Program-made: the position numbers and the translations under genes
The notes under the pieces: generated by a model
What the model was told of the DNA's origin: nothing
The model's database searches: none
What the model saw: the letters and a program-made list of their open reading frames with translations, nothing else
In this document: positions 9,211-29,168 of the stretch, in pieces
Position numbering within the stretch: position 1 is the stretch's first letter
How the letters are laid out: each line of letters starts with the position of its first letter
NCBI RefSeq assembly: GCF_002263515.1
Contig: NZ_CP022752.1
Location: 2,480,001-2,544,000 of the forward strand
DNA: 64,000 bases
Direction of reading: 5' to 3'
Origin: Actinopolyspora erythraea
GTDB lineage: Bacteria; Actinomycetota; Actinomycetes; Mycobacteriales; Pseudonocardiaceae

Positions 9211-10149
9211 TCACCGCCCCGCCTGCCGGGCCTCCCGCTGCGGCACCACCGTGTAGTAGGGATCCCGGGCGGACGCCCTTCCGGCCTCGAACACACCGTA
9301 GCGGGTGGCCGCCGAGGCGGCCGTGCCGCAGAGCCCCGCCAGCACGGCCGCGCTCCCGCTGCGGCGGGCCAACAACGCGCCGACGGCGCACCCGGCGGCC
9401 AATACCCTGGCCGCGCGTAGCACGGTTCCCGCCCTGCCCGTCCGGTAGACCTCGGCGATCCTGCCCGCCCGGTGTTCCAGCGCCCGGCTCGCCACGAGCT
9501 CGCCGAGCGAACCCACCACGGCCATGCGCCGCGCCGGTCCGGCCTCCGCGCGTGGTGCCAGCATCGTCCCCACGCTTCCGGCCGCCCCCACCGAGCTGAA
9601 GGCGAACACGAAGGGGAGCTCACGGCGCGTCTCGTGCCAACCGGGCACCGCCGTGTCGGCGAGCAGCACGGCGGTGTAGGTCGTCATCGCCGGCCCCAGC
9701 ACCCCGGCGCACCCGGCCGCCACGTCGGCGAGGGGGCGGGCGAAACCGGTGAGTTCGGAAACCGCGACGGCACCGCTGAGTGCGGAGAACGGGGCGAGTA
9801 TCCAGGACCCCACGCTCAGCGGCGAGGTGGGTTTGAACACGCGCAGCATGTTCAGGAACCGCCGGGGACGGCCGAGGTCGTGAACGAGCGCCAGCACGCT
9901 GGCACTCGAACCGCCCGCCGCGCAGAGTCGCCCGACCCGGCACAACCGGGGTTGGCCCCGGAGCTGGGCGAGGACCGCCATCACCGCCGAACCCCCCGCC
10001 ATACCTCCCAGGTAGAGGTAGGCGGGCACGTCGGGAACCTTCCAGGTCGGTTCCTTGATGATCGGCCTGCCGTAGTACGAGCGGAACGACTCGCGCCCCT
10101 CGGGGGCACCGCCGGAAGGGGGTCCGCCGCTCGGTGCGTTCCCGGTCAA
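9211..10149 (-). CDS. NrfD/PsrC-type membrane anchor subunit of formate dehydrogenase
   Basis: A 312-aa polytopic protein of the NrfD/PsrC family, which holds an iron-sulfur subunit at the membrane and exchanges electrons with quinone. Helix-rich segments start at residue about 45 (YLYLGGMAGGSAVMAVLA). The motif ALVHDLGRPRRFLNMLRVFKPTSPLSVGSW is characteristic of the family. The ATG overlaps the stop of the Fe-S subunit by four bases (10146-10149). As the third gene after fdhA and fdhB it probably replaces the cytochrome b subunit of classical Fdh-N. A 136-bp gap separates it from the next gene downstream. Confidence 0.88.
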   Translation of the reverse strand: MTGNAPSGGPPSGGAPEGRESFRSYYGRPIIKEPTWKVPDVPAYLYLGGMAGGSAVMAVLAQLRGQPRLCRVGRLCAAGGSSASVLALVHDLGRPRRFLNMLRVFKPTSPLSVGSWILAPFSALSGAVAVSELTGFARPLADVAAGCAGVLGPAMTTYTAVLLADTAVPGWHETRRELPFVFAFSSVGAAGSVGTMLAPRAEAGPARRMAVVGSLGELVASRALEHRAGRIAEVYRTGRAGTVLRAARVLAAGCAVGALLARRSGSAAVLAGLCGTAASAATRYGVFEAGRASARDPYYTVVPQREARQAGR

Positions 10150-11153
10150 CGGCGACCTCCCAGGAAGCAGGACGCGATGGTCACCGCCGCGGTCGTCGCC
10201 GCCGCCAGGGCGTAGGCGGCCATCGCGGGCAGGTCCCTGGTGGTGACCACCGGGTCGGGTGGCAGCCCGTAGACCTCGGGCTCGTCCAGCAGCAGGAAGA
10301 ACGCGCCGTCACCTCCCACCCCGTCGGTGGGATCGTGCCCGTAGAGCCTGGCTTCGGTGATCCCCTGCTCGTGCAGCTGGTCGAGGCGCTGTTCGGCCCG
10401 CTGCCGCAGCTGGTCGAGCGGCCCGTACTGGATGGACTCGGTGGGACAGGCGGTGGCGCACGCCGGGGCCAGTCCCGAGCCGAGCCGGTCCTGGCACAGC
10501 GTGCACTTGAACGCCCCGCCGTCGCGGGGATGGATGTCGATCACCCCGTAGGGGCAGGCCGGGACGCAGTAGCCGCACCCGTTGCACACCTCGTCCTGGA
10601 CCACCACGGTGCCGTGCTCGGTGCGGATCAACGCCCCCGTCGGGCACACGTCCAGGCAGGCGGCGTGCGTGCAGTGCTTGCAGACGTCGGAGGACATCAG
10701 CCAGCGCACCTCGGTCGCCCCGGACCCGTCCGCCCCCTCCGTGGACTCCTGCGGTGTTCCCACGCCCGGCATCCCGAGGTCCACCCGGGAACGGGTCGAG
10801 GGGTCGATGCGCTGCTCGACGAACGCCACGTGGCGCCAGGTGGTGGCTCCGAGGTCGGTGGTGTTGTCGTAGGACATCCCGGTCAGGTCCAGCCCGTCCT
10901 CGTCGAGCAGGTTCCACTCCTTGCAGGCGACCTCGCAGGCCTTGCACCCGATGCACACGCTGGTGTCGGTGAAGAACCCGACCCGCTCCGGGTGCGAGGC
11001 CGGATAGCCCGCCTCGGAGCTGGGATCGGCCAGCGGACCGCTGAGCCGGTTGCCTTCCCTGGCCTCCCCTGGTTCCGCCCGGCCGTGCGCGCTGCTCCGC
11101 ATCGAACGTTCGAGCCCGAAGAGGGGGTGTTCGGACGACGCGTCAGGACTCAT
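10146..11153 (-). CDS. fdhB: 4Fe-4S ferredoxin-type subunit of formate dehydrogenase
   Basis: A 335-aa electron-transfer subunit with four Cys groups, as in FdnH/FdoH-type proteins. The first is CIGCKACEVACKEW (residues 67-80), followed by CKHCTHAACLDVCP, CNGCGYCVPACPYG and CTLCQDRLGSG with ACATACP. Each is expected to bind a [4Fe-4S] cluster carrying electrons from the FdhA active site to the NrfD anchor. A hydrophobic helix lies near the C-terminus (AYALAAATTAAVTIASCFLGG), as in Fdh-N beta subunits. The ATG at 11153 overlaps the fdhA stop by 11 bp. An upstream in-frame start would only add overlapping shadow sequence. Confidence 0.92.
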   Translation of the reverse strand: MSPDASSEHPLFGLERSMRSSAHGRAEPGEAREGNRLSGPLADPSSEAGYPASHPERVGFFTDTSVCIGCKACEVACKEWNLLDEDGLDLTGMSYDNTTDLGATTWRHVAFVEQRIDPSTRSRVDLGMPGVGTPQESTEGADGSGATEVRWLMSSDVCKHCTHAACLDVCPTGALIRTEHGTVVVQDEVCNGCGYCVPACPYGVIDIHPRDGGAFKCTLCQDRLGSGLAPACATACPTESIQYGPLDQLRQRAEQRLDQLHEQGITEARLYGHDPTDGVGGDGAFFLLLDEPEVYGLPPDPVVTTRDLPAMAAYALAAATTAAVTIASCFLGGRR

Positions 11154-14100
11154 CCCCGCCTCCCTCGGCCGTACCCGTGCCGCTCTCCGGCGCCCCGTCA
11201 TCCGGCGTGGGAGCGTCGCCGCCGGTGTGCTCGGTGATGCCCGCGCGGGCGCGGTAGGTGGCGACCAACCTGTTCAGCGCCGGCCCGCGGGGCCGTCTGC
11301 CGGGACGGATGTCGCAGGTGCCCGCCTTGGTCTCCATGATGTGCACGGTGGGGTCCAGCGCGACCCCGAGCAACTCGTTGGCGGCGTCCCCCGTGGTCAA
11401 CCCGTTGGGCCCCCAGTGCCACGGGATGCCGATCTGGTGCAGCGTCCTGCCGTTCGAACGCAGTGGGCGAATGCGCTGCGTGATCAGCACGCGTCCCTCG
11501 ATCGCGCCGCGAGCGGTGATCACCGTGGCCCAGCCGAGGTGGCGCAGCGCCCGTTCGGCGGCCAGTTCGGGGGAGATCTCGAAGAACATCGCGGGGGCCA
11601 ACTCCGCCAGGTGCGGCAACCACCGACTCATCCCGCCGGCGGTGTGGTGCTCGGTGAGCCGGAAGGTGGTGAACACGTAGGGAAACACCTCCGCTCCCGG
11701 TTCGGCACCACTGGGTTGGTACCGGTTCTCCGGCCGGTGGTACAGCTGGCGCGCCGGGTTGCGCTGCGTGGTGTGCAGCGTGTTGCTCAACGGTGACTCC
11801 TGCGGCTCGTAGTGGGTGGGCAGCGGGCCGTCGCGCAGCCCGGCCGGCGCGTACAGCCAGCCGAGCCCGTCGCCCTGCATGACGAACGGGTCGGTGCCGC
11901 GCAGCGCCTCGGGACCGCGTGCCTCGGCGGCCGGTTCGTAGTCGGGAGGTTTGGTCGCCTCGAAGTCGGGCACGTCGTGGCCGGTCCAGCGCTGCTGTCG
12001 CTCGTCCCACCAGACGTGGGCTTTGCGCTCGCTCCACGGCCTGCCCGCCGGGTCGGCGGCGGCGCGGTTGTACAGGATTCGCCGGTTGGCGGGCCAGGCC
12101 CAGCCCCACTCGGGGGCGACCCAGGACTGCCGCTGCCCCGGTTCCCGGCGCGCGGCCCGGTTGACCTCCTCGGCGTAGACCCCGCAGTAGATCCAGCACC
12201 CCGAACGCGTGGAGCCGTCGGAGCGCAGCAGGGTGTAGGAGGACAGCGCCCGGCCGTTCGCGTCGGTGCCGTTTATCTCGCGGAGCACGGCGTCGGCGCT
12301 CGGTTCCTCGATGGCCCCCTCCGTGGGGTAGTCCCAGGTCAGTTCCAGCACGGGGCGGTCACGTTCGCGCTGGTCCGCGTCGCGTTCGAGCCGCCGGGCC
12401 GCGAGCTTGGACTTGATCCGCAGTCCCAGGTGGTAGAAGAACCACAGGTCGCTGCGCTGGTCGTCGGCGGGCTCGACCGCCTTGTGGTGCCACTGCAGCA
12501 TGCGCTGGGTGTTGGTGAAGGTGCCGTCCTTCTCGGTGTGCGCGGCGGCGGGCAGGAAGAACACCTCGGTGCCGATCTCGGTGGGGCTCGTCTCACCGTT
12601 GTCCACCTCCGGCCCGTCCTTCCAGAACGTGGCCGTCTCGATCATGTTCAGGTCGCGCACCACCAGCCAGTCCAGATTGGCCAGCCCCGTGCGCTGCTGG
12701 TGCGCGTTGGCCGTGCCCACCGCGGGGTTCTCGCCGATGACGAAGTAGCCGCGCACCCTGCCCTCGATCTGGTCGATCACGGTGCGGAAGCTGCCGTGGT
12801 CACCGGTGAGCCTGGGCAGGTGATCGAACCGGAAGTCGTTCTCGGCGGTGGCGTACTCGCCCCACCAGGCCTTGAGCAGGCTGACGACGTAGTCGCGCAT
12901 GTTGGCCCAGTACCCCTTGTCGGCGGCGTTGGTGGCCACGAAGTCGTCCAGCGAGAGATCCGGGTGCGCCGACGGCATCGGGATGTAGCCGGGCAGCAGG
13001 TCGAACAGGGTGGGGATGTCGGTCGAGCCCTGGATGCTGGCGTGGCCCCGCAGCGCGAGAATCCCGCCGCCGGGTCTGCCGATGTTGCCGAGCAGCAGCT
13101 GCAGGATGGAGGCGGCCCGGATGTACTGCACCCCCACCGTGTGATGGGTCCAGCCCACGGCGTAGGCGAAGGCGGTGGTGCGCTGCCTGCCCGAGTTGGC
13201 GACCAGCGCCTCGGCGACCTCGTGGAACCGCCACCGCTCGATCCCGCACAGCTGCTCCACGAGTTCCGGGGTGTAGCGGGCGAAGTGGCGCTTGAGGATC
13301 TGGAACACGCAGCGTGGATGGGTCAGGCTCGGATCGGTCTCGGGCTCGGCGCGAGGCGTCGACTCCCCCGCCGCGGCCGCTCGGTCGTGCTCGGATGCGC
13401 CGAGGACGTCGTTCCACTGGTCGCGCTCGCCAGCCGCCGGGTTGACCCGGGCACCCTGGTAGGACCAGCTGGCCGGATCGTAGGCGTCGCCGGTGAACCC
13501 GGAGAACACGCCGTCCAGGTCCTCGGTGTCGGCGAAGGACTCGTCGACGATCGTGGCCGCGTTGGTGTAGTTGACCACGTACTCGTGGAAGTGGTGCCCG
13601 CCCCGCAGCACGTGGTTGATCAGCCCGCCGAGGAAGGCGATGTCGCTGCCCGCGCGCAGCGGGACGAACGTGTCGGCCATCGCCGAGGTCCGGGTGAACC
13701 GGGGATCGACGTGGATGATCTTCGCACCGCGCCGCTTGGCCTCCATCACCCACTGGAACCCGACCGGGTGAGCTTCGGCCATGTTGGAGCCCTGGATGAC
13801 CACGCAGTCGGAGTTGCTCAGGTCCTGCTGGAAGGTTGTGGCCCCACCGCGGCCGAAGGAGGTTCCCAGACCGGGAACCGTGGAGGAGTGTCAAATGCGG
13901 GCCTGGTTCTCGATCTGGAGGGCGCCGAGGGCGGTGTAGAGCTTCTTCATGAGGTAGTTTTCCTCATTGTCCAGCGTGGCCCCGCCCAGACTCGCGATTC
14001 CCATGGTGCGGCGCAGCCGCGTACCGTCCGAATCGGTCTCCTGCCAGGTCTCGTCGCGGGTGCGGATCACCCGGTCAGCGATCATGTCGACCGCGGTGTC

Positions 14101-14451
14101 GAGGTCGAGCTCCTCCCACTCGGTGCCGTGCGGCCGTCGGTAGGCGACCCTGCGCTGCCTGTCGGGCGAGGTCACCAGGGATCGACTGGCCGACCCCTTC
14201 GGGCAGAGCCTGCCCCGGCTCACCGGCGAGTCGGGATCGCCCTCGATCTGGGTGACGGCACCGTCGCGCACGAACACGCGTTGCGCACAGCCCACGGCGC
14301 AGTAGGGGCACACCGAACCGACCACCGCGTCGGCGTCCTCGGTGCGGGCGTGCTCGCGGTCGGTGGCGGCCGAACGGGCCGCCTGACCACGACCGAGCGG
14401 ATCGGACCCCAGCAACTGGCGCAGCACCGGCCAGCGCAACCACTCCCGCAT
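11143..14451 (-). CDS. fdhA: Selenocysteine-containing formate dehydrogenase catalytic subunit
   Basis: Read through an in-frame TGA at 13891-13893, this is a 1102-aa molybdopterin oxidoreductase with Sec at residue 187. The bases around it encode NQARI-U-HSSTVPGLGTSFGRGG, the exact context of the Mo/W-ligand Sec in Fdh-N/O enzymes. The N-terminal [4Fe-4S] site is C48-x2-C51-x3-C55-x27-C83. Downstream VIQGSNMAEAHPVGFQW and the C-terminal DPTVHIMETKAGTCDIRPG belong to the pterin-binding domains. It oxidises formate to CO2. A GGUCU-loop hairpin follows the UGA, and selA, selB, selC and selD lie within about 14 kb. No Tat signal is evident, so the active site may face the cytoplasm. Standard gene callers will split it into a 186-aa and an 886-aa piece. 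Confidence 0.93.
13861..13893 (-). promoter_or_regulatory. Sec UGA codon with bacterial SECIS-like hairpin
   Basis: On the minus strand the UGA (13893-13891) is followed after 11 bases by a perfect stem GGTTCCC / GGGAACC around the loop GGTCT (13879-13861). The apical GGUCU loop is the element recognised by SelB in the E. coli fdhF and fdnG SECIS, and the distance fits. The hairpin lies within the coding sequence, as expected for bacteria. Confidence 0.88.
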
Positions 14452-14701: not shown

Positions 14702-15262
14702 GTGGCCGAAGAGGAAAGCGGACAGCCGAACACGGGCGGATCGAGTGAAACGGGCACCGACGGTCAGCCCGGGATGGACGCCGCGGACCGGGCCGCGCTG
14801 GACGCCGAGATGCAGGACGTGGCCGGCAGCGCGCTGTTCACCGGTCCCGCCGGGCTCGCCAAGGAGATGGCCGACATCGCCCGCATCGCCGACCGCGCCA
14901 ACACCAAGGCCGAACTGGCCCAGGCCATCAGCGACAACACCCGCATGGTCGTCGACCCCGACGAGGTCGACGCGCTCGCGGGGTTCTTCGAGGAGAAGGC
15001 CAGTGAACTGGAAGATCGTTGGTTGAAGATTTCTGAACTGGCAAACATTCCTCCACCGGGTACCGATCCGGTCAGCACGGGCGCCGCGTCGATCCACGGC
15101 CAAGTCGCTTCAGGCGACGACCGGTCGTACATACCCAACTACCTGAAACTCGCGCAGGTGTTCAACGACACCGCCGCGAGCCTGCGCTCCAGCGCCAGGC
15201 AGACCCGCACCGACGACGCCAACGCAGCCGACAGCTTCGACCGGGGGATCCAGAATGCGTAA
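14702..15262 (+). CDS. Acidic helical protein of a type VII secretion-associated group
   Basis: A 186-aa protein with no signal peptide or membrane segment. A disordered acidic N-terminus (about 25 residues) leads into predicted helices rich in Ala and Glu, with DEVDALAGFFEEKASELEDRWLKI at about residues 87-110 and FNDTAASLRSSARQT near the end. This resembles PE/WXG100-like helical partners encoded beside PPE-like proteins and EspG in Pseudonocardiales. The GTG start has GGGGGAAG just upstream. Its stop overlaps the start of the lipoprotein gene by 8 bp. The role as an ESX substrate or partner is inferred from neighbours. Confidence 0.6.
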   Translation: MAEEESGQPNTGGSSETGTDGQPGMDAADRAALDAEMQDVAGSALFTGPAGLAKEMADIARIADRANTKAELAQAISDNTRMVVDPDEVDALAGFFEEKASELEDRWLKISELANIPPPGTDPVSTGAASIHGQVASGDDRSYIPNYLKLAQVFNDTAASLRSSARQTRTDDANAADSFDRGIQNA

Positions 15263-15836
15263 CACCGTCACCACCGGAATCTCCCTGGCAGCCGGACTGC
15301 TGCTGCTCGCCGGATGCAGCGGTGGTGGCCAGACCGGCCAAGCGGCGCAGGACACCACCGACACCGGCACAAGCGCCCCCAGCAGCACCTCCGGGGTGAG
15401 CTTGCCGGAGCGCACCGCACCCGCCAAGTCCCTCGACCTCGCAGACCCCTGCACCATCATCACGAAGCAACAACAGAACAACCTGGGGGCCAGCCAACCA
15501 CCAGAAAAAACCAGCATCAACGAAAAAATAGGGTGCAAATACCAAAAAGGGGACTCGGGAGCCAAAGATGGATGGTTTGTCTTTATCTCAGTAGATCCCA
15601 AAAGAACAGCAGAAGAATTTGTCAGCAAACGCCCCACCGGGCAAGAAATAAATATTTCCGGATATCCGGCCTACAAACTGAAAAATTTCCCCAACTGTCA
15701 GATTGTCGTTGACATCGCAAACTCCGGATCGCTTTTCATTAATGGGGGAATCAGGTTTCAGGAGAGCCGGCCGGATCCCTGTCCGATCTTCACCGAGTTC
15801 GCCGAGACCGCTGTCGAGAACCTATCTGAAGCATGA
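15255..15836 (+). CDS. DUF3558 lipoprotein, copy 1
   Basis: A 193-aa exported lipoprotein. The signal peptide MRNTVTTGISLAAGLLLLAGC has its lipobox Cys at residue 21. A Thr/Ser-rich linker follows, then a DUF3558 domain starting LDLADPCTIIT with further Cys (about residues 62, 94, 147 and 175) likely forming disulfides. Copy 2 follows directly, and the first 200 bp of the two are nearly identical. Bases about 15465-15760 are unusually AT-rich for this genome (AAA, AAT and ATA codons), unlike the 5' part. Context is a type VII secretion group; function is unknown. Confidence 0.85.
   Translation: MRNTVTTGISLAAGLLLLAGCSGGGQTGQAAQDTTDTGTSAPSSTSGVSLPERTAPAKSLDLADPCTIITKQQQNNLGASQPPEKTSINEKIGCKYQKGDSGAKDGWFVFISVDPKRTAEEFVSKRPTGQEINISGYPAYKLKNFPNCQIVVDIANSGSLFINGGIRFQESRPDPCPIFTEFAETAVENLSEA
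15258..15463 (+). repeat. Direct repeat, copy A (5' part of DUF3558 gene 1)
   Basis: About 206 bp nearly identical in sequence to 15971-16174. It covers signal peptide, linker (GQTGQAAQDTTDTGTS) and the LPERTAPAKSLDLADPC block. Identity falls sharply after this point. Confidence 0.75.
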
Positions 15837-15898
15837 GACGCACTGGAAGCAGGAGACAGGCTAAGAGGTTCCCCATTCCGTCCGCCGAGGGGGAAGCA

Positions 15899-16546
15899 GT
15901 GGCAGCCGGAGCAACGGAACCGGTCAACGCGGACGGCACACGACTACACGGGAAGCCGCAGCCGGTATCGCGTAACACCGTCGCCACGGGGGTCTCCCTG
16001 GCAGCGGGACTGCTGCTCGCCGGATGCGGTGGTGGTCAGACCGGCCAAGCGGCGCAGGACACCACCGACACCGGCACGAGCAGCAGCACCAGCAGCGCAC
16101 CCGGAGCGGGCCTGCCGGAGCGCACCGCACCCGCCAAATCCCTCGACCTCGCAGACCCCTGCGCCATCATCACGCGACAACAAGCAACCGAACTCGGAGT
16201 CAACCAGCCGTTGGAAAATGCTAATTCCAATGGAAAGGAGGGATGTCGGTACCAAAAAGGGAACCCCGGCACCGAGAGTGGTTGGTACGTATTCGTCGCC
16301 GCAGACACAAAACGGACCGCACAAGAGTTCTCTTCACGAAGCCCAGGAGGTCAAATCACAAACATAGCTGGCTATCATGCATATCAAGTCGATGACGGCG
16401 GCGCATGCATGATCGCAGTTGATGTTTCTAACCAGGGGTCAATTTTCATCAACGGCATAACGCGACTTCAAGAAAATCGCACTGCCGCTTGCCCAATCTC
16501 TACCGAGTTCGCCGAAGCCGCGATCAAGAACCTGCCCGAAGCCTGA
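15899..16546 (+). CDS. DUF3558 lipoprotein, copy 2
   Basis: A 215-aa paralogue of the preceding gene. GTG 15899 is the best start because GAGGGGGAAG lies directly upstream. An ATG at 15833 that overlaps the previous stop is the alternative. In copy 1 the signal peptide begins at ATG-CGT; here the matching bases read TCG-CGT, so the original start is lost and about 24 extra residues precede the signal sequence. The lipobox Cys is residue 43 (LLLAGC). The DUF3558 domain starts LDLADPCAIIT. The 3' half is again AT-richer. Whether the longer N-terminus still permits export is uncertain. Confidence 0.8.
   Translation: MAAGATEPVNADGTRLHGKPQPVSRNTVATGVSLAAGLLLAGCGGGQTGQAAQDTTDTGTSSSTSSAPGAGLPERTAPAKSLDLADPCAIITRQQATELGVNQPLENANSNGKEGCRYQKGNPGTESGWYVFVAADTKRTAQEFSSRSPGGQITNIAGYHAYQVDDGGACMIAVDVSNQGSIFINGITRLQENRTAACPISTEFAEAAIKNLPEA
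15971..16174 (+). repeat. Direct repeat, copy B (5' part of DUF3558 gene 2)
   Basis: Second copy of the roughly 205-bp tandem duplication (see 15258-15463). It carries several silent differences and a small linker indel. Copy spacing is about 713 bp. Confidence 0.75.
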
Positions 16547-16559
16547 GGAGAACCGATTC

Positions 16560-17825
16560 ATGGGGGACAGACGCACGCTGCCGCCGTCCAACCTCGACGG
16601 GGCACAGTTGGAACAGATGCGCTCCTGGGTCAACAGCGGCAAGGGCGCCGAGGCGCTCCACGAGAAGAGCCGCCGCTGGCGCACCGAGGAGCAGTACATG
16701 CGCGACCTGGCCACCGAGGTCAAGGACAGGTTGAAGAAGGCCGGGGCCGTGAACCAGTCGCGGGGCCAGGAAGCCATGCACAACGCCATGTCACCGGTGG
16801 TGCTGTGGACCGAGGTCGCGGCTGACAACGCCGCCGCCGAGGCGGTGCGGCTGGAGGAGCAGGGTCAGGCCTTCAGCAGGGTGCACTCCTCCATCCCCGC
16901 CTCCTCCGAGGAGAAGCCCGTTCCGGAGGAGAACGTCCTCGGGCGGGCCTGGGCCGGTCTCACCGGCGGCAAGACCGACAACGAGCAGGCGCTGGCGCAC
17001 AACGAGAAGCTGCGGCAGGACGCGGTCACGGCGTTCAAGGCCTACGACGGCGCCTCGCGGACCACCGTCAGCGCCACCCCCACCTTCACGGCTCCCCCGC
17101 CGGGCGGCGTCGAAACCGGGGTGCGCTCCGGATCGAATCCCGAGGTCGGGGGCTTCGCTTCGGGCTCGGGCGGCGCCGGTGGCCCCGCCACCACCCGCAG
17201 CTCCTGGTCCGGTTCGCTCGACGCCCCGGCCGGAACCGGCACCGCCGGTGCTGGGACCGCGGGCACCGGCACAGCCGGGCAGTCGACGGTCGGGGCCGGT
17301 TCGGGCAGCAACCAGCCCGCGGGCAGTCATTCCGCGTGGCAGCGCCCGCCGGAAGGCGGTTCCTCCGGCCCCCGGCCGGGCCAGTCCGGCACTCCGGGCG
17401 GCGGCGCCGGAGGTGGCTCGGGCACCGGCCGCTCCCCTGGCGGTCCCGGTGTCGCGGGCGGAACGGGACGTGCTCCCGGCGGCCGGGTCCCGGTACGCGG
17501 CCTCGGCTCGCTGGCGGGCGGCTCGGGCGGTGGAACCGGTTCCGGAGCGGGCGGCCGGGGTTCCACCGGGCTCGGTGGCCGTTCCCTCGGCCCCGGTGGG
17601 CAGTCCGGGGTCGCTCGCCCGTCCACCGCTTCCGCCGCGACGGGCGGCGCGACCACCTCGGGCGCCGGGAACGCTCGCGGCGGCATGGCGGGCGCTCCGC
17701 GCGGCGGCGCCCAGCGGGGTGAGGAGGACGAGGAGCACGAGACGCCAAGCTACCTCGTCGGTGACTACGGCTACTTCGACGGTGACCTGCCGCGCGTGGC
17801 CCCGCCGGTCATCGGTGAGGACTGA
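16560..17825 (+). CDS. PPE-like type VII secretion substrate with Gly-rich tail
   Basis: A 421-aa protein. Residues about 10-160 are helical with a PPE-like arrangement (LEQMRSWVNSGKGAEALHEKS, then WRTEEQYMRDLATEVKDRLKKAG, then SPVVLWTEVAADNAAAE). Residues about 180-395 are a low-complexity Gly/Ser/Pro/Thr tail. The last 30 residues (YLVGDYGYFDGDLPRVAPPVIGED) are acidic and ordered-looking. It follows the DUF3558 genes and precedes an EspG-type chaperone gene, the usual order for ESX substrates in this group. GAGGAG lies about ten bases before the ATG. No ESX core gene (EccB-E) is in the window. Confidence 0.75.
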   Translation: MGDRRTLPPSNLDGAQLEQMRSWVNSGKGAEALHEKSRRWRTEEQYMRDLATEVKDRLKKAGAVNQSRGQEAMHNAMSPVVLWTEVAADNAAAEAVRLEEQGQAFSRVHSSIPASSEEKPVPEENVLGRAWAGLTGGKTDNEQALAHNEKLRQDAVTAFKAYDGASRTTVSATPTFTAPPPGGVETGVRSGSNPEVGGFASGSGGAGGPATTRSSWSGSLDAPAGTGTAGAGTAGTGTAGQSTVGAGSGSNQPAGSHSAWQRPPEGGSSGPRPGQSGTPGGGAGGGSGTGRSPGGPGVAGGTGRAPGGRVPVRGLGSLAGGSGGGTGSGAGGRGSTGLGGRSLGPGGQSGVARPSTASAATGGATTSGAGNARGGMAGAPRGGAQRGEEDEEHETPSYLVGDYGYFDGDLPRVAPPVIGED

Positions 17826-17993
17826 TCGGAGTCTCGCGGCGGGGTTGGCGAGCTGCTCGTTCGGGAACCTCCCGCCCGCTCACTTTCGAGCGCGAAGTCT
17901 TCGGGCAGCGATGCTCGGACAGCGTCTCGGATCGGATCCAACAGCGTGTCGCGGCGCCGGGCGTCCTCCCGGCGCCGCCGTTCGGGGGCAAGG

Positions 17994-18776
17994 GTGAACA
18001 TCGAACTTTCCGAACAGGCGTTCCACCTCGCCTGGCAGCACTTCCGGCTCGGCACGAAACCGCTCTCGCTGAACGTCCTGCCCGAAGGGCTCACCGAGTC
18101 GGAGCGGCGCGACGTCGAGCAGCGGAGCTGGGAGGAGTTGCGCCGGCTCGGCTTCGGTGACCGGGACGCCGAGGACGCCGTCTCCGGGGTGTTCTTCCCG
18201 CTGGACCGCTACCGGGACTCCTTCGACCTGGTGTACCGCTACCTGTCCGAGGAAGGGGAGCATCGCCGGACGGCGTTGGCCGCGAACGGCCCGGCCAGTT
18301 CGGCGCTGGCCGTCCGCGAGGGCGGTGTGGTGCGGTTGCGGCAGTTGGGCGCCGACGACGCCCCGCACCGGGCTGTGGTGGGGGTGCTTCCCGAGTTGAC
18401 CCCCGGCCCGGGGAAGGCGGTCTCGGTGCCCAGTGACCAGCTCGACGCGGCGGCGGCCGAGGCCGGGGACTCCGGCCGGGCGATGCGCGAGGCGCTGCTG
18501 CGGCGAGGGGTGCGTCGTGACGACGCGGGCACTCTCGTGGAGATGGCGGGCGGTGAACGCGTGGGCTACGCCCAGTTCGGAGCCGCGCGGATGGACCGGC
18601 GCGGCAACCGTTCCAGGGCACCGATGGTGACCAACTGCTTCGCCACCCCCAACGGGTGGTACCTGATGGAGGAAATCACCCGCAGTGGGCGGGCGTGGAC
18701 CACCTTCGCCCCGATCGACCGGAACCGGCTGTCGGAGCGGGTGCGCGACCTGGCTCGGAGCATCGGGCCGGAGTGA
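17994..18776 (+). CDS. EspG-family ESX secretion-associated protein
   Basis: A 260-aa protein of the EspG family, the cytosolic chaperones that bind PE-PPE pairs before type VII export. It begins VNIELSEQAFHLAWQHFRLG and contains FFPLDRYRDSFDLVYRY, then a C-terminal TNCFATPNGWYLMEEI block typical of the family. GTG 17994 is chosen because the 16 codons before it are Arg-rich shadow and GGGGG lies just upstream. A 168-bp gap follows the PPE-like gene, and a strong hairpin follows its stop. Confidence 0.82.
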   Translation: MNIELSEQAFHLAWQHFRLGTKPLSLNVLPEGLTESERRDVEQRSWEELRRLGFGDRDAEDAVSGVFFPLDRYRDSFDLVYRYLSEEGEHRRTALAANGPASSALAVREGGVVRLRQLGADDAPHRAVVGVLPELTPGPGKAVSVPSDQLDAAAAEAGDSGRAMREALLRRGVRRDDAGTLVEMAGGERVGYAQFGAARMDRRGNRSRAPMVTNCFATPNGWYLMEEITRSGRAWTTFAPIDRNRLSERVRDLARSIGPE

Positions 18777-22980: not shown

Positions 22981-24003
22981 TCAGCGGACCGTGACGGCGT
23001 GCTCTTCCGCGCTGATCAGCCTGCCGATCACCGGGGCGTTCGGCAGTTCTCCCGCGACCAGCAGCCCACCCGAGGTCTGCGCGTCGGCGAGCAGCAGCGC
23101 TTCGTGTTCGTCCACTCGGGACAGTTCGGTGTGCTCGCTCACCCAGCGCAGGTTGCGACGCGTCCCCCCGCTGACGTAACCGTCGCGAACCGCCTCGCGC
23201 GCTCCGTCCAGGTAGGGAACGGCGTTCGAGTCCAGCACCGCGGAAACACCGCTGGCGCGGGTCAGTTCGAGCAGGTGCCCGAGCAGCCCGAAGCCCGTGA
23301 CGTCGGTGGCGCACCCGGCTCCCACCGCCAGAGCCTGCCGGGCCGCCGACTCGTTGAGGGTGGTCATCGCCTCGACCGCCTGCGGGAAGACCTCTCCGGT
23401 GGCCTTGTGCCGCGTGTTGAGCACCCCGATTCCCAGCGGCTTGGTCAGCGACAGCGGTGCCCCCGCCGTGCCGGCGTCCGCACGCAGCAGCCGATCGGCC
23501 GAGGCGGTTCCGGTCACGGCCATGCCGTACTTCGGCTCGGGATCGTCGAGGCTGTGCCCACCGGCGACCGGACACCCCGCCAGTTCCGCGACATCGGCGC
23601 CGCCGCGCAGCACCCGCTGCGCCAGCTCCATCGGCAGCAGGTCTCGTGGCCACCCCAGCAGGTTCAGCGCCAGCAGGGGACGTGCCCCCATGGCGTAGAC
23701 GTCGGACAGCGCGTTGGTGGCGGCGATCCGGCCCCAGTCGTAGGGATCGTCGACCACGGGGGTGAAGAAGTCCGTGGTGGCCACGATCGCGGTGTCGCCG
23801 TGCAGCCGGATCACTGCCGCGTCGTCCCCCGCGTTGAGTCCCACCAACATCTCGTGGGCGGAGCGGTCGCCGTTCGCGGCGATCCCCGAGCCCGTCACGA
23901 TGGAGTCGAGTTCGCCCGGGGGGATCTTGCACGCACAACCGCCACCGTGCGCGTACCGCGTCAGGCGGTAGGTTTCGGTGGTGGCGGTCCCGACATCGGT
24001 CAT
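22981..24003 (-). CDS. selD: Selenide, water dikinase (selenophosphate synthetase)
   Basis: A 340-aa enzyme making selenophosphate from selenide and ATP, the Se donor for SelA. The catalytic region near residues 18-29 reads YAHGGGCACKIPP, with C23 and C25 plus K26, so it is a Cys rather than Sec version. The ATP/Mg loop GLNAGDDAAV and the motifs TTDFFTPVVDDPYDWGRIAATNALSDVYAMG and TDVTGFGLLGHL are all present. The gene diverges from selC (tRNA-Sec) with a 61-bp gap. Confidence 0.95.
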   Translation of the reverse strand: MTDVGTATTETYRLTRYAHGGGCACKIPPGELDSIVTGSGIAANGDRSAHEMLVGLNAGDDAAVIRLHGDTAIVATTDFFTPVVDDPYDWGRIAATNALSDVYAMGARPLLALNLLGWPRDLLPMELAQRVLRGGADVAELAGCPVAGGHSLDDPEPKYGMAVTGTASADRLLRADAGTAGAPLSLTKPLGIGVLNTRHKATGEVFPQAVEAMTTLNESAARQALAVGAGCATDVTGFGLLGHLLELTRASGVSAVLDSNAVPYLDGAREAVRDGYVSGGTRRNLRWVSEHTELSRVDEHEALLLADAQTSGGLLVAGELPNAPVIGRLISAEEHAVTVR

Positions 24004-24064
24004 GCCCCGAAGCTAGTCCACCAGGCGAACGAGGGCGTGGCGCAACACGCGGGACGACGGCACT

Positions 24065-24160
24065 GGAGGCGTAAGGGTGCCTGGTGGCCCCCGCGGTCTT
24101 CAAAACCGACGTGGCCGAGCAACTCGGTCAGGCGGGTTCGATTCCCGTCCGCCTCCGCCA
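24065..24160 (+). tRNA. selC: tRNA-Sec (anticodon UCA)
   Basis: The acceptor strands GGAGGCG and CGCCTCC pair, and the gene ends GCCA, so CCA is encoded. The anticodon loop is CTTCAAA with UCA at 24100-24102. A long variable arm (around TGGCCGAGCAACTCGGTCA) and a T-arm GGTTCGATTCC follow. The length of about 96 nt is typical of bacterial tRNA-Sec, and selD, selA and selB are adjacent. The minus-strand DUF1992 reading frame overlaps its 3' two thirds. Confidence 0.95.
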
Positions 24161-24681
24161 CGCACCAGCCTGCGCCACCAGGCACGCGCCCGGCCGGAAC
24201 GACGCCCCCCTGCCACTCCGGGGTCGGCGCTCTCGCCCGCGTCGGCGCGCCCGCCCGACGGCGACGCGGCCTCGGCTTCGGCGGCACGGCGCTCGCGCCA
24301 CCGGCGTACGGTCTCCTCGACATCGACCGGGGCGACCTTGACGCGCGGACCGCTGGGGGCCCGCAGCCAATCGGCGATGCGCAGGTTGAGCTCACCGACC
24401 AGCTCACGCACCGCGTCCTCGGAACGCAGCTCGGCCACGGTGTCCGGAAGCCGGTCGATCTCCTTGCGCAACTGCACGGCGGGCGGCAGCAGTGCCTCGG
24501 TGGACAGCCCCTCCCGTTCGACGTACTTCTTGACCCAGGAAAGCTCGTCCTCGTTGCCCAGCTCGGGCAACGGCTTGCCGGTACCGGGCAGGTCGTCGAA
24601 CTCCCCGCGCTCCCTGGCCGTGCGGACCTGGCGGTCGATCCAGGTCTCGAAGTCCATCCCCGGCGGTTTCCGTTCGGCCAT
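24100..24681 (-). CDS. DUF1992 (DnaJ-homologue subfamily C member 28-like) protein
   Basis: A 193-aa protein. The DUF1992 core near residues 8-80 is clear: FETWIDRQVRTARERGEFDDLPGTGKPLP followed by WVKKYVEREGLSTEALLPPAVQLRKE. The C-terminal 60 residues are low-complexity and Arg/Gly-rich. The last 20 or so (GGRESNPPDRVARPRRF) are antisense to tRNA-Sec, and the TGA stop is the complement of the UCA anticodon. The true gene may once have ended earlier. The start at ATG 24681 is the usual family N-terminus. Function unknown. Confidence 0.8.
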   Translation of the reverse strand: MAERKPPGMDFETWIDRQVRTARERGEFDDLPGTGKPLPELGNEDELSWVKKYVEREGLSTEALLPPAVQLRKEIDRLPDTVAELRSEDAVRELVGELNLRIADWLRAPSGPRVKVAPVDVEETVRRWRERRAAEAEAASPSGGRADAGESADPGVAGGRRSGRARAWWRRLVRGGGGRESNPPDRVARPRRF

Positions 24682-24760
24682 GACTCGATTGTGCACCGGT
24701 ACGTCCTCGCGGATCATCCGTCGAGTTGGTGGGGTCTGGATGGTTTTGGTTGTGGATTTA

Positions 24761-24801
24761 TTTCGATCAACACTGAAAACACAGAGTGTTTCAATCGGAA
24801 A
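24761..24801. promoter_or_regulatory. AT-rich inverted repeat upstream of selA
   Basis: Arms AACACT (24769-24774) and AGTGTT (24785-24790) flank GAAAACACAG. The similarity extends imperfectly outward to TTTCGAT and AATCGGAAA. It is an island of low GC between DUF1992 and selA. It could be an operator or a transcript hairpin for either divergent gene. Confidence 0.45.
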
Positions 24802-24865
24802 ATACATCCGACGTGCCAGCGCACGAAGCCGAACGAACGCTCCCCCGCTGCGTATCGTCACGAAC

Positions 24866-26191
24866 GTGGACGAACGGCGGAACATCCCGGCCACGGACCG
24901 GGTGCTCGACGAGCCCTGGCTCGCCGCGGCCGTCGAACGCTTCGGACGAGAGCGGGTGAAGCGGGCCGTCCACACCGCCCAGCGGCGCGCCCGGGCCCGC
25001 GAGATACCCGCCGAGCAGGTGACCGAGGAAGCGGCGGCGAACCTGCCCGCCTCGGTCGGCGGGCTGCGCCCGGTGCTCAACGCCACCGGGGTGCTGCTGC
25101 ACACCAACCTGGGCCGGGCTCCCCTGTCGGAGGCCGCGGTGCTGGCCCTGCGGGAGGCAGCCGGCACCTGCGACGTCGAGCTGGACCTGCACACCGGTGC
25201 GCGCGGTCGTCGCGGGGCGAGCGTCACGCGCGGCCTGCTCGACGCGGTCCCCGAGGCCGGGAGCGCACACGTGGTGGGCAACGGCGCGGCGGCACTCACC
25301 CTGGCCGCCACCGCCCTGGCCGGTGACCGCGAGATCGTGCTGGCGCGCGGTGAGATGGTCGAGATCGGCGCCGGCTTCCGCATCCCCGACCTGCTGTGCT
25401 CCACCGGCGCGCGACTGCGCGAAGTCGGCACGACCAACCGTGTCGAGCTCGCCGACTACCGGGCGGCGGTCGGGGCGGAAACCGGGTTCGTGCTCAAGGT
25501 GCACCCGTCGAACTTCGTGATCAGCGGGTTCACCTCCTCGGTCGAACCGGGCGAGCTCGGCGGCCTGGACGTGCCGCTGGTCGTCGACATCGGATCCGGA
25601 CTGCTGGAACCGCACCCCGGGCTGCCGGACGAACCCGACGCGCGCACCACGCTGCGCGCCGGGGCCGACCTGGTCGTGGCCAGCTGTGACAAGCTGCTCG
25701 GCGGGCCGCAGGCCGGGCTGCTGCTCGGCAGGGCGGCCATCATCGACACGCTCCGGAGGCATCCGCTGGCCCGTGCGCTGCGCCCCGACAAGCTCACCCT
25801 GGCCGCGCTGCACGCGACCCTGAACGGACCTCCCACGCCGACCGCGCGTGCGCTGGACCGCTCCCACCGGGAACTGCGCGCCCGCGCCGAACGGATCGCG
25901 GAGTCGGCGCGTGCGGCCGGGGTCGCCGCCACGGCCGTGGACACCGTCGCGAGCATCGGAGGCGGCGGAGCGCCGGGCGTGGAACCGGACAGCGCCGCCG
26001 TGGCCCTGCCCGAGCCGTACTCGGCGCGCCTGCGCGGGAGCACTCCACCGGTGCTGACCCGGGTGGAGACCGGTCGCTGCCTGGTCGACCTGTTCGCGCT
26101 GGGGCCGGAGCAGGACGCGGAACTTACCGGAGCGATCCTCCGGAGCGCGGAGCGGGCTGACCCCACGCCGAGGAGGGCTCCGTGCGAGTGA
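24866..26191 (+). CDS. selA: L-seryl-tRNA(Sec) selenium transferase
   Basis: A 441-aa PLP enzyme converting Ser-tRNA-Sec to Sec-tRNA-Sec with selenophosphate. The PLP lysine is K276 in ASCDKLLGGPQAG. Other landmarks are LNATGVLLHTNLGRAPLS (residues 71-88), GNGAAALTLA and KVHPSNFVISGFT. GTG 24866 gives the normal family N-terminus, although no clear ribosome site is seen, so the message may be leaderless. The stop lies 10 bp inside selB, implying coupling. Confidence 0.95.
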   Translation: MDERRNIPATDRVLDEPWLAAAVERFGRERVKRAVHTAQRRARAREIPAEQVTEEAAANLPASVGGLRPVLNATGVLLHTNLGRAPLSEAAVLALREAAGTCDVELDLHTGARGRRGASVTRGLLDAVPEAGSAHVVGNGAAALTLAATALAGDREIVLARGEMVEIGAGFRIPDLLCSTGARLREVGTTNRVELADYRAAVGAETGFVLKVHPSNFVISGFTSSVEPGELGGLDVPLVVDIGSGLLEPHPGLPDEPDARTTLRAGADLVVASCDKLLGGPQAGLLLGRAAIIDTLRRHPLARALRPDKLTLAALHATLNGPPTPTARALDRSHRELRARAERIAESARAAGVAATAVDTVASIGGGGAPGVEPDSAAVALPEPYSARLRGSTPPVLTRVETGRCLVDLFALGPEQDAELTGAILRSAERADPTPRRAPCE

Positions 26192-27966
26192 TCGCCACGG
26201 CGGGACACGTGGACCACGGCAAGTCCACGCTGATCCACGCGTTGACCGGGATCCAGCCGGACAGGTGGACCGAGGAGCGGCGTCGCGGGCTGACCATCGA
26301 CCTGGGCTTCGCCTGGCGGGAACTGCCCGGTGGGGAACGCATGGCGTTCGTCGACGTACCCGGCCACCAGCGGTTCGTGCGCAACATGCTGGCCGGGGTC
26401 GGCGAGGTCACTGGAGTGCTGTTCGTGGTGGCCGCCGACGAGGGGTGGATGCCGCAGTCCGACGAACACCTGCGGGCACTGCACGCGCTGCGCGTGCGGC
26501 ACGGGGTGCTGACCGTCACCCGCAGCGACCTGGCCGACCCGCTGCCCGCCCTGCACCAGGCCCGACGACGGTTGTCCGAGAGTTCCCTGGCCGGAGTCCC
26601 CGAGGTGGTGGTCAGCGGTTCCACCGGTGCCGGGCTCGGTGAGCTCACCGCTGCGCTCGACGATCTAGCGCGTCGGATGCCGACACCGGATCCCGACGCC
26701 GACGTGCGGCTCTGGCTGGACCGCTCCTTCGGCGTCCACGGCGCGGGAACCGTGGTGACCGCGACGCTGTCGGCGGGAACCTTGACCCGCGGCGACGAAC
26801 TGGTGGTGGCCCGCACCGGGCGGCGCGTGACGATCCGCGGGCTGCAGAGCCTCGGCGAGGAGCGGGAAGCTGTCGGAGCTCCCGCGAGGGCTGCGCTGAA
26901 CCTGCGCGGGATTCGCTCCGAGGAGCTCGACCGCGGCGACGCCCTGCTGACCCCGGGCGCCTGGCGGCTCACCGAGTGCGTGGACGTGCTACTGCGGGAC
27001 AGCCGGGCCACCGAGCTGCCCCGCGAACTCGGCATGCACATCGGCGCGGCCGCCACCCCGGTGCGGGTGCGACCGCTGGGGCACGAGGTCGCCCGGTTGT
27101 CCCTGCATCGGGCGCTGCCGCTGCGGATCGGTGACACCGCCCTGCTGCGGGACGCGGGGCGCCACCTCGTGCCCACGGGAGTTCGCGTCCTCGACGTGTG
27201 CCCACCGGCACTGCGCCGTCGCGGGGCGGCCGCCGCCCGCGCCGCGGAGCTGCGGCGGAACCGGGACCGCCCCGCCGGTGCGGTGCTGCTCGAACGGCGC
27301 GGCGTGATGCGCGCCCCGGAACTGCGCGCGGCGGGCGTCCGCACTCCCCCGTGGGCGTTGCGGAGCGGGGACTGGCTGCTGGCACCGGACGCCCGGGAGG
27401 ACTACGCCGCGCGACTGGTCGAACTCCTCGACCGGAGCCACCGGGAACACCCGATGGACGACGGGATCACCGAACGGGCGGCGCTGCGACGGCTGGGCCT
27501 GCCCCACCCCTCGTTGCTGCCACTCGTGCTGGACTCACCGCGCACCACCGGTGTGACCGCGACCGGTGGCCGGCTGCGGCTGCGAGGGCCCGAGCTGAGC
27601 GAGCACGTGCGCGAGGGGGTGGCCGCGCTCCGGGAGCGGCTGGCCGAGCGCCCCTTCGAGGCTCCCACCGCCGGGGAGTTGCGCCGGTTGGAGCTGGACA
27701 CCGAACACCTCGGCGCGGCGAGCAGGGCCGGTGAACTGCTCAGGGTCGCCGAGGGAATCTACCTGCTGCCGGGGGCGTTGCGGCAGGCGCGGGACCTGCT
27801 GGCGCGGCTGCCGGAGCCGTTCACCCCGAGTCAGGCCCGCGAGGTGCTGGGAACGAGCCGCCGAGTGGCGGTCCCGCTGCTGGAGCGCCTCGCCCGTGAG
27901 GGCTACACCCGGAGGCTGCCGGACGGCACGCACCGAGTGCTGGCAGCTCCCCCACCGGAACGGTGA
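26182..27966 (+). CDS. selB: Selenocysteine-specific elongation factor
   Basis: A 594-aa GTPase that carries Sec-tRNA-Sec to UGA codons followed by a SECIS. The G1 motif is GHVDHGKST (residues 8-16), the G2 region is RRRGLTIDLGFA, the G3 motif is DVPGH, and a G4-equivalent TRSD is present. EF-Tu-like domains 2 and 3 are followed by about 230 residues of winged-helix repeats that read the SECIS (for example PFTPSQAREVLGTSRRVAVPLLERLAREG near the end). The GTG start overlaps selA. A likely user of the factor here is fdhA. Confidence 0.95.
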   Translation: MRVIATAGHVDHGKSTLIHALTGIQPDRWTEERRRGLTIDLGFAWRELPGGERMAFVDVPGHQRFVRNMLAGVGEVTGVLFVVAADEGWMPQSDEHLRALHALRVRHGVLTVTRSDLADPLPALHQARRRLSESSLAGVPEVVVSGSTGAGLGELTAALDDLARRMPTPDPDADVRLWLDRSFGVHGAGTVVTATLSAGTLTRGDELVVARTGRRVTIRGLQSLGEEREAVGAPARAALNLRGIRSEELDRGDALLTPGAWRLTECVDVLLRDSRATELPRELGMHIGAAATPVRVRPLGHEVARLSLHRALPLRIGDTALLRDAGRHLVPTGVRVLDVCPPALRRRGAAAARAAELRRNRDRPAGAVLLERRGVMRAPELRAAGVRTPPWALRSGDWLLAPDAREDYAARLVELLDRSHREHPMDDGITERAALRRLGLPHPSLLPLVLDSPRTTGVTATGGRLRLRGPELSEHVREGVAALRERLAERPFEAPTAGELRRLELDTEHLGAASRAGELLRVAEGIYLLPGALRQARDLLARLPEPFTPSQAREVLGTSRRVAVPLLERLAREGYTRRLPDGTHRVLAAPPPER

Positions 27967-28115: not shown

Positions 28116-29168
28116 ATGCCGCACAAGATCTGGGCGGGATCGCTCAAGTTCGGTCTGGTGACCATTCCCGTCGGGCTGTACAGCGCCACCGAGGACCACG
28201 GCCTCCACTTCAACCAGTACGAACGCGGGACCCACGACCGGGTGCGCTACCGCAGGATCAACGAGCGCACGGGCAGGGAGCTGGAGGGTGACGAGGTCGT
28301 CAGGGGCCGGGAGGTCGACGGCACGCTGGTCACGGTCGAGCAGTGGGAGCTCGACGAGGTCGCCCCGGAGCGTTCCCGGACGATCGAGATCGAGGAGTTC
28401 GTGGCCCTCTCCGAGATCGATCCGGTCCACTTCCAGAAGGCCTACTGGGTGGCTCCCGACGACCGGCGGAACGCGCGCGGCTACAGCCTGCTGCGCCGTG
28501 CGATGGCCGAAACCCAGCGGGTGGGGATAGCCAACTTCGTGTTCCGCGGCAAGGGGTACCTGAGCGCGCTGCGTCCGGAGAACGACGCGCTGGTGCTGCA
28601 CACGCTGTTCTTCCCGGACGAGATACGCGACCCCGCGTACGTGCTGGAGCACGCCCCCGGCGACGACTCCTACGACTCGCGGGAGCTGCGGACGGCCGGG
28701 GACCTCATCAGGACCATGAGCGCGCCGTGGCGACCGGACGAGCACGTCGACACCCACACCGCCCGCGTCGAACGGCTGCTCGCGGACAAGGCGGCCGGAC
28801 GCGCACCGCGTGGCGAGCCCGAGCGGCCCGCCGCCCCCGAGGTCGGAGAGCTGGCCGACGCGCTGCGCCGCAGCACCGAGCGGGCCCGCGCCGCCCGGGG
28901 GAGTTCCACCAGGGACTCCGACGTGCCCGGTGGCAGCGGGACCACCGCTGTCCCGGATCCGAGGCCGGTGTCCACGCTGAGTCGTGAAGAGTTGCGGCGC
29001 AGGGCACGCGAGCTGGGCATCCGGGGCAGGTCCAAGCTCAGCCGGGCCCAGCTGGAGCGGGCGATCACCGAATCGCCGGGTGTGCACCGGAACAGGCGAT
29101 CGGAGAGCGAGCCCACCGGGAAGAAGTCGCGAAGGAGCCCCCGGGACCAAGGAGGTGGATCATCCTGA
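28116..29168 (+). CDS. ku: Ku-type DNA end-binding protein
   Basis: A 350-aa prokaryotic Ku homodimer subunit for non-homologous end joining. It begins with the hallmark MPHKIWAGSLKFGLVTIPVGLYSATE and contains YWVAPDD and LRRAMAETQRVGIANFVFRGKGYL. The C-terminus has a SAP-like segment (LSREELRRRARELGIRGRSKLSRAQLERAI), then a basic tail, as in longer actinobacterial Ku proteins. A LigD-type polymerase gene lies 3.8 kb downstream on the other strand. No ligase domain was found in the window. Confidence 0.95.
   Translation: MPHKIWAGSLKFGLVTIPVGLYSATEDHGLHFNQYERGTHDRVRYRRINERTGRELEGDEVVRGREVDGTLVTVEQWELDEVAPERSRTIEIEEFVALSEIDPVHFQKAYWVAPDDRRNARGYSLLRRAMAETQRVGIANFVFRGKGYLSALRPENDALVLHTLFFPDEIRDPAYVLEHAPGDDSYDSRELRTAGDLIRTMSAPWRPDEHVDTHTARVERLLADKAAGRAPRGEPERPAAPEVGELADALRRSTERARAARGSSTRDSDVPGGSGTTAVPDPRPVSTLSREELRRRARELGIRGRSKLSRAQLERAITESPGVHRNRRSESEPTGKKSRRSPRDQGGGSS

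What the first reader, a model, noticed from the sequence alone, without database searches (positions are those of the whole stretch)
11143..14451. Selenoprotein FdhA hidden by an in-frame UGA
Two ORFs join across a UGA in the exact Sec context of formate dehydrogenase. Automatic annotation would call a pseudogene or two fragments.
Basis: partly seen in the sequence, partly recalled or inferred. Interest (0 to 1): 0.75.

Follow-up and report, generated by a model that had tools for sequence, protein, structure and literature searches.

The report
Selenocysteine formate dehydrogenase, ordinary actinobacterial type
A stop codon inside a formate-oxidising enzyme gene is almost certainly read as the rare amino acid selenocysteine, and the genes for making and inserting that amino acid lie a few kilobases away; this is a real but well-known arrangement in actinobacteria.

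Summary
On the minus strand, 14451-11143 is one 1102-codon fdhA gene with a single in-frame TGA at 13891-13893. The joined ORF alone proves little (15 comparable TGA-split pairs in the window, this one included). Independent evidence is strong: residue 187 aligns with X in the solved formate dehydrogenases 1kqf and 1h0h; a hairpin with loop GGUCU follows after an 11-nt spacer, its six inner pairs formed in 75 of 75 TGA relatives; 75 of 80 relatives carry TGA there, 2 TAG, 3 Cys codons; selD, tRNA-Sec(UCA), selA and selB lie at 22981-27966; selB goes with this fdhA (62 of 78 genomes with a match, 7 of 43 without). Selection is purifying on both sides of the TGA. It is an fdhABC set for an NrfD-anchored formate dehydrogenase. 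NCBI has a family model for it (NF041513, 1922 bits, cut-off 1400), and selenium-dependent formate removal has been shown in the actinobacterium Actinomycetospora (PMC7176365). The selenoprotein reading is supported, the claim about annotation only in part; the finding is ordinary. Se incorporation itself is not shown.

The parts
11143..14451 (-). fdhA: formate dehydrogenase catalytic (alpha) subunit, 1102 residues with Sec at 187
   Evidence: (NF041513 1922.5 bits, cut-off 1400; TIGR01553 910.3, cut-off 814.2)
13891..13893 (-). in-frame TGA = Sec codon (residue 187, motif QARI-U-HSSTVPGL)
13861..13879 (-). SECIS hairpin GGTTCCC-GGTCT-GGGAACC after an 11-nt spacer; loop at 13868-13872
10146..11201 (-). 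fdhB: iron-sulphur (beta) subunit ORF; likely start ATG at 11153, overlapping the end of fdhA (start inferred from the sequence)
   Evidence: Fer4_11
9211..10149 (-). fdhC: NrfD-type membrane subunit (start codon not checked)
   Evidence: PF03916, 44 bits, cut-off 25.8, residues 36-163 only
22981..24003 (-). selD, selenophosphate synthetase, with Cys in GGGCACK (no TGA, so not itself a selenoprotein)
24065..24160 (+). selC: tRNA-Sec, anticodon UCA
   Evidence: (RF01852 78.1 bits)
24866..26191 (+). selA (start GTG 24866 inferred; the ORF is listed as 24077-26191)
   Evidence: (TIGR00474 383.8 bits, cut-off 267.9)
26182..27966 (+). selB, Sec-specific elongation factor
   Evidence: (TIGR00475 263.5 bits, cut-off 242.25)

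Best explanation
The gene is the catalytic subunit of a molybdenum- (or tungsten-) and selenium-dependent formate dehydrogenase. During translation the ribosome meets UGA at codon 187; the hairpin just downstream binds SelB, which brings Sec-tRNA(UCA) made by SelA from selenophosphate supplied by SelD, and Sec is inserted instead of termination. Sec187, followed by the conserved His188, ligates the bis-MGD metal centre and oxidises formate to CO2; electrons pass through the Fe-S cluster of FdhA and those of FdhB to the NrfD-type membrane subunit and the quinone pool. Shown here: gene, homology, conserved hairpin, presence of the sel genes and of fdhD. Inferred from the known families: Sec incorporation, catalysis, electron route and membrane side.
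For: Two family models over cut-off with the TGA read through. Residue 187 aligns with X in 1kqf_A and 1h0h_A within a matching motif (QARI-U-HSSTV; QARV-X-HGPTV; QARI-X-HSATV; that X is Sec there is recalled). 75 of 80 relatives have TGA, 2 TAG, 3 Cys codons. The inner six pairs form in 75 of 75 TGA and 2 of 2 TAG relatives, loops GGTCT 56, AGTCT 13, AGTTT 6 of the 75; each of the 3 Cys relatives forms 4 of 6. The loop codon ends in T in 76 of 76 TGA sequences (window included), against GGT in 481 of 6232 downstream Gly codons of the TGA relatives. Pair 18-30 of the stem has two-sided changes in 15 of 39 sequences. tRNA-Sec, selA, selB and selD in the window; one selD and one fdhD over cut-off in the genome. 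Of 121 genomes of the order, selB is over cut-off in 62 of 78 with an fdhA match and 7 of 43 without (cross-read); among the 29 relatives whose codon was read, 15 of 18 TGA, 8 of 8 TAG and 0 of 3 Cys. dN/dS 0.14-0.22 before and 0.27-0.34 after the TGA, three relatives.
Against: The 47-nt stretch does not fold better than shuffles (z -0.61; 46 of 200 at least as good), and no Rfam family matches it at the gathering score. In the covariation test (40 of the 76 TGA sequences given) only one pair has two-sided changes; that measure and the number of pair types are not exceptional (265 and 92 of 500 shuffles reach them), the columns are also coding, and the outermost pair is unformed in 22 of 39. 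16 of 78 genomes with an fdhA match (13 unplaced-codon or TGA drafts and near-misses, 3 Cys-type) show no selB over cut-off, and 7 have selB without this fdhA. A crude hydropathy scan finds only two strong membrane stretches in the NrfD-type subunit and one in FdhB. No expression or selenium data for this organism.
Confidence: 0.97

Rival explanations
1. The TGA is a true stop: a pseudogene or sequencing error, with only fragments made.
For: A. mzabensis P0002 is stored as an 884-aa protein starting after this position. Long ORF pairs across a TGA are common at this GC (15 in the window, this one included).
Against: TGA in 75 of 80 relatives from other species' assemblies and in a 98-99% identical copy in a same-genus genome (L096); purifying selection on both sides; conserved hairpin; catalytic residue aligned; sel genes present.
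Confidence: 0.02
2. UGA is read through without SECIS and SelB, inserting Trp or another ordinary residue.
For: Readthrough of UGA occurs in bacteria generally (recalled).
Against: Hairpin and T-ending loop codon kept in the TGA sequences and weakened in 3 of 3 Cys relatives. In the loci read the position is Cys when it is not a stop codon. The three Cys genomes sampled lack selB over cut-off.
Confidence: 0.01
3. Sec is inserted, but the main role is different (CO2 reduction, or another substrate of the DMSO reductase superfamily).
For: Family membership alone does not fix direction or substrate.
Against: Over the cut-off of the FDH-N equivalog TIGR01553 (910.3 against 814.2) and of NF041513; fdhD present. 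Selenite made formate accumulation almost negligible in Actinomycetospora, which encodes three Sec-FDHs (PMC7176365, passages read).
Confidence: 0.05

Closest known systems
NF041513 formate_DH_Act (NCBIfam model, description 'formate dehydrogenase')
   Same: Matches residues 5-1068 at 1922.5 bits, cut-off 1400; gene order fdhA, 4Fe-4S protein, nrfD as in the TGA-type relative on pYA7-1a
   Different: No difference found with these tools
Actinomycetospora chiangmaiensis FDH1/FDH2 (PMC7176365, passages and abstract read)
   Same: Sec-containing membrane-bound FdhA of 1078 and 1089 aa; selA and selB listed with FDH1; selenium-dependent formate removal
   Different: That genome has three Sec-FDHs; here one full match of this family, the other matches (at most 75 bits) having no stop inside
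E. coli formate dehydrogenase N (FdnGHI; 1kqf)
   Same: FDH-N alpha equivalog over cut-off; nonstandard residue at the same place; enterobacterial fdnG (Salmonella, L138) also has TGA and an AGTCT sequence in the hairpin loop region
   Different: No twin-arginine pattern in the first 60 residues; membrane subunit NrfD-type where FdnI is a cytochrome b (recalled); FdhB below the TIGR01582 cut-off (177.6 against 334.7)

Membership tests
Formate dehydrogenase alpha subunit (FDH-N type) | Score over curated cut-off of TIGR01553 | tested here: met
   910.3 against 814.2
Formate dehydrogenase alpha subunit (FDH-N type) | Mo-pterin Fe4S4, molybdopterin and dinucleotide-binding domains | tested here: met
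   PF04879, PF00384, PF01568
Formate dehydrogenase alpha subunit (FDH-N type) | Sec or Cys metal ligand followed by His (role recalled) | tested here: met
   U187-H188 aligned with X-H of 1kqf and 1h0h
E. coli FdnGHI complex | Cytochrome b gamma subunit (recalled) | tested here: not met
   third gene matches NrfD, PF03916
E. coli FdnGHI complex | Tat export signal on alpha (recalled) | tested here: not met
   no RR-x-hydrophobic pattern in residues 1-60 (simple pattern, start codon as)
E. coli FdnGHI complex | FdhB over TIGR01582 cut-off | tested here: not met
   177.6 against 334.7
Bacterial selenoprotein | In-frame UGA followed closely by a SECIS hairpin with G and U in the loop (loop rule recalled) | tested here: met
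   stability not above shuffles
Bacterial selenoprotein | selA, selB, selC, selD in the genome | tested here: met
Bacterial selenoprotein | Sec present in the protein | not testable with these tools
   needs 75Se labelling or mass spectrometry
NF041513 formate_DH_Act | Score over curated cut-off | tested here: met
   1922.5 against 1400

The most novel reading that the evidence does not exclude
This genome keeps the whole Sec machinery (SelA, SelB, SelC, SelD) for a single selenoprotein, a formate dehydrogenase without a recognisable Tat signal whose active site may face the cytoplasm and which feeds the membrane through an NrfD-type subunit, unlike the periplasmic FDH-N. A hairpin model built on this gene family finds only this site in the genome (73.7 bits; the next two 18.4 and 15.2), but the model includes the window, is biased to FdhA, and only 150 of 8312 candidates were scored, so other selenoproteins are not excluded.
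Probability: 0.35. Interest if true: 0.3.

Novelty: new member of a known kind. Interest (0 to 1): 0.12.

Why it matters
It gives the correct gene model for an enzyme whose nearest named homologue is stored without its N-terminal part, and it predicts that this organism's formate oxidation by this enzyme depends on selenium. It does not change understanding of the Sec system.

Tried and rejected
Joined ORF as evidence in itself: rejected, 15 TGA-split pairs of that size in the window, this one included. Hairpin stability as evidence: rejected, z -0.61. A second tRNA-Sec at G000:C1:1279145 (50.8 bits, over cut-off): ARAGORN calls a tRNA-Gly there; the family's cut-off is also passed in 5 of 14 control genomes. 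Rows with two TGAs in relatives as possible double-Sec proteins: in the four such loci read (L105, L110, L117, L122) the only stop inside the aligned range is at position 187; the other stop was not placed, and the rows without a locus were not checked. Stop counts are not Sec counts: the row of G049 says 1 TGA, yet its position 187 is TGC (L100). SelD as a second selenoprotein: it has Cys. No structure prediction or fold search was run, since solved relatives match by sequence. Three Cys relatives (L056, L068, L079) were not tested for selB genome-wide.

Full report
Observation. The minus-strand ORF 14451-13891 ends in TGA (13891-13893) and the frame continues open to 11143. The coordinates are correct. 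Long open stretches divided by one stop are frequent in this 69.5% GC window (20 pairs, 15 with TGA, this one included), so other evidence is needed.

Homology. The read-through product (1102 residues) scores 1922.5 bits against NCBIfam NF041513 (cut-off 1400) and 910.3 against TIGR01553, FDH-N alpha (cut-off 814.2). It has the three expected Pfam domains. In the PDB comparison residue 187 falls on X of 1h0h_A and 1kqf_A, followed by His; in 9qm0, titled selenocysteine-containing, the aligned letter is C. That X is Sec in the first two, and that they come from Desulfovibrio gigas and E. coli, is recalled. The downstream genes are an Fe-S subunit, below the TIGR01582 cut-off, and an NrfD-type subunit matched over residues 36-163 of 312.

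Conservation. A second sample, the 29 relatives for which one search gave loci (of 77 genomes besides the window's own with a match), gives 18 TGA, 8 TAG and 3 TGC. dN/dS is 0.22, 0.14 and 0.20 before and 0.27, 0.34 and 0.34 after the TGA against L001, L002 and L005.

Co-occurrence with selB. I read against each other by hand; both list 121 genomes under the same handles. selB is over cut-off in 62 of 78 genomes with an fdhA match (E up to 1e-200) and in 7 of 43 without. Among the 29 whose codon was read: 15 of 18 TGA, 8 of 8 TAG, 0 of 3 Cys. The three TGA genomes without it are drafts of 220, 400 and 550 contigs. Among the 48 genomes whose codon was not read, 10 have no selB over cut-off; four of these score 231.9 to 238.5 bits, just under 242.25. 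The 7 genomes with selB and no fdhA match were not followed.

SECIS. The hairpin lies at 13861-13879, after an 11-nt spacer. The six inner pairs form in 75 of 75 TGA relatives and 2 of 2 TAG relatives, and 4 of 6 form in each of the 3 Cys relatives. The loop codon is GGT (57) or AGT (19) in 76 TGA sequences, window included, though only 481 of 6232 downstream Gly codons are GGT. The covariation test (40 sequences chosen of the 76, 39 distinct) gave 15 two-sided changes, all at one pair; no shuffle of 500 reached that or the covariation score, but 265 and 92 reached the number of changed pairs and of pair types; the outermost pair is unformed in 22 of 39. Folding energy is not exceptional, and Rfam at gathering scores lists only the tRNA. 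A model from the 40 sequences finds this site at 73.7 bits and nothing above 18.4 elsewhere in the genome; the window is in the model, and 150 of 8312 candidates were scored.

Machinery. selD (minus) and tRNA-Sec, selA, selB (plus) lie at 22981-27966. The tRNA has anticodon UCA. SelD has Cys in GGGCACK. fdhD is elsewhere in the genome. Linkage is common in relatives: of 53 TGA loci at least 23 kb long, 39 have selA, selB or selD in the fetched stretch. The organism is probably an Actinopolyspora, inferred from the closest named hits; no tool names it.

Known status. PMC7176365 (passages and abstract) describes three Sec-FDHs in Actinomycetospora and selenium-dependent formate removal. PMC5029168 (passages) calls FdhA and SelD the most widespread bacterial selenoproteins; PMC1794560 (passages) says that one or the other is in every selenoproteome it studied. 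A search for Actinopolyspora with selenocysteine listed one paper, PMC5029168. Annotation: the A. mzabensis homologue is an 884-aa record (DNA not fetched), while a TGA-type relative is listed as a single CDS in the RefSeq plasmid record (that table never flags joined or pseudo genes).

Verdict. A very well supported Sec-encoding fdhA, of a known kind; Se incorporation itself is untested.

Noticed in passing
L142, L137 (Arthrobacter sp. YA7-1 plasmid pYA7-1a, NZ_CP110115.1, about 26-40 kb): A plasmid typed as conjugative carries a whole Sec module: TGA-type fdhA with hairpin, a 4Fe-4S gene, nrfD, selD, tRNA-Sec(UCA), selA, selB, next to a Tn3-family transposase and a recombinase. A possible vehicle for Sec-trait transfers to Arthrobacter such as those listed in PMC5029168 (passages). 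One paper search (selenocysteine, conjugative plasmid, selB, formate dehydrogenase) listed none.
   Followed up: partly
L066, L067 (Blastococcus, Geodermatophilus); L103, L106, L107, L113, L115, L120, L121, L124 (unnamed, all in one family, f16): FdhA has TAG in place of TGA at the Sec position; in the genomes of L066 and L067 the best tRNA-Sec match has anticodon CUA and ARAGORN calls it tRNA-Pyl. Known for Geodermatophilaceae (PMC5330540, passages read).
   Followed up: yes
L018, L125 (Saccharomonospora halophila 8): PMC5029168 Table 1 (passage) lists this organism as having orphan SelD, but it has a TGA-type fdhA with the hairpin and a tRNA-Sec. No selA passed the cut-off, perhaps a gap in a draft, so the orphan status looks doubtful.
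   Followed up: partly
G011, G031, G033, G044, G089, G100, G111: Seven genomes of the order have selB over cut-off but no match to this fdhA at E 1e-200: other selenoproteins, divergent fdhA or assembly gaps.
   Followed up: no
window 28116-29168 (+): Ku protein for non-homologous end joining (TIGR02772, 263 bits) just after selB.
   Followed up: no
window 14702-18776 (+): ESX-like genes beside fdhA: a weak PE-family match (20.5 bits, cut-off 22), a DUF3558 protein, an EspG-family protein.
   Followed up: no
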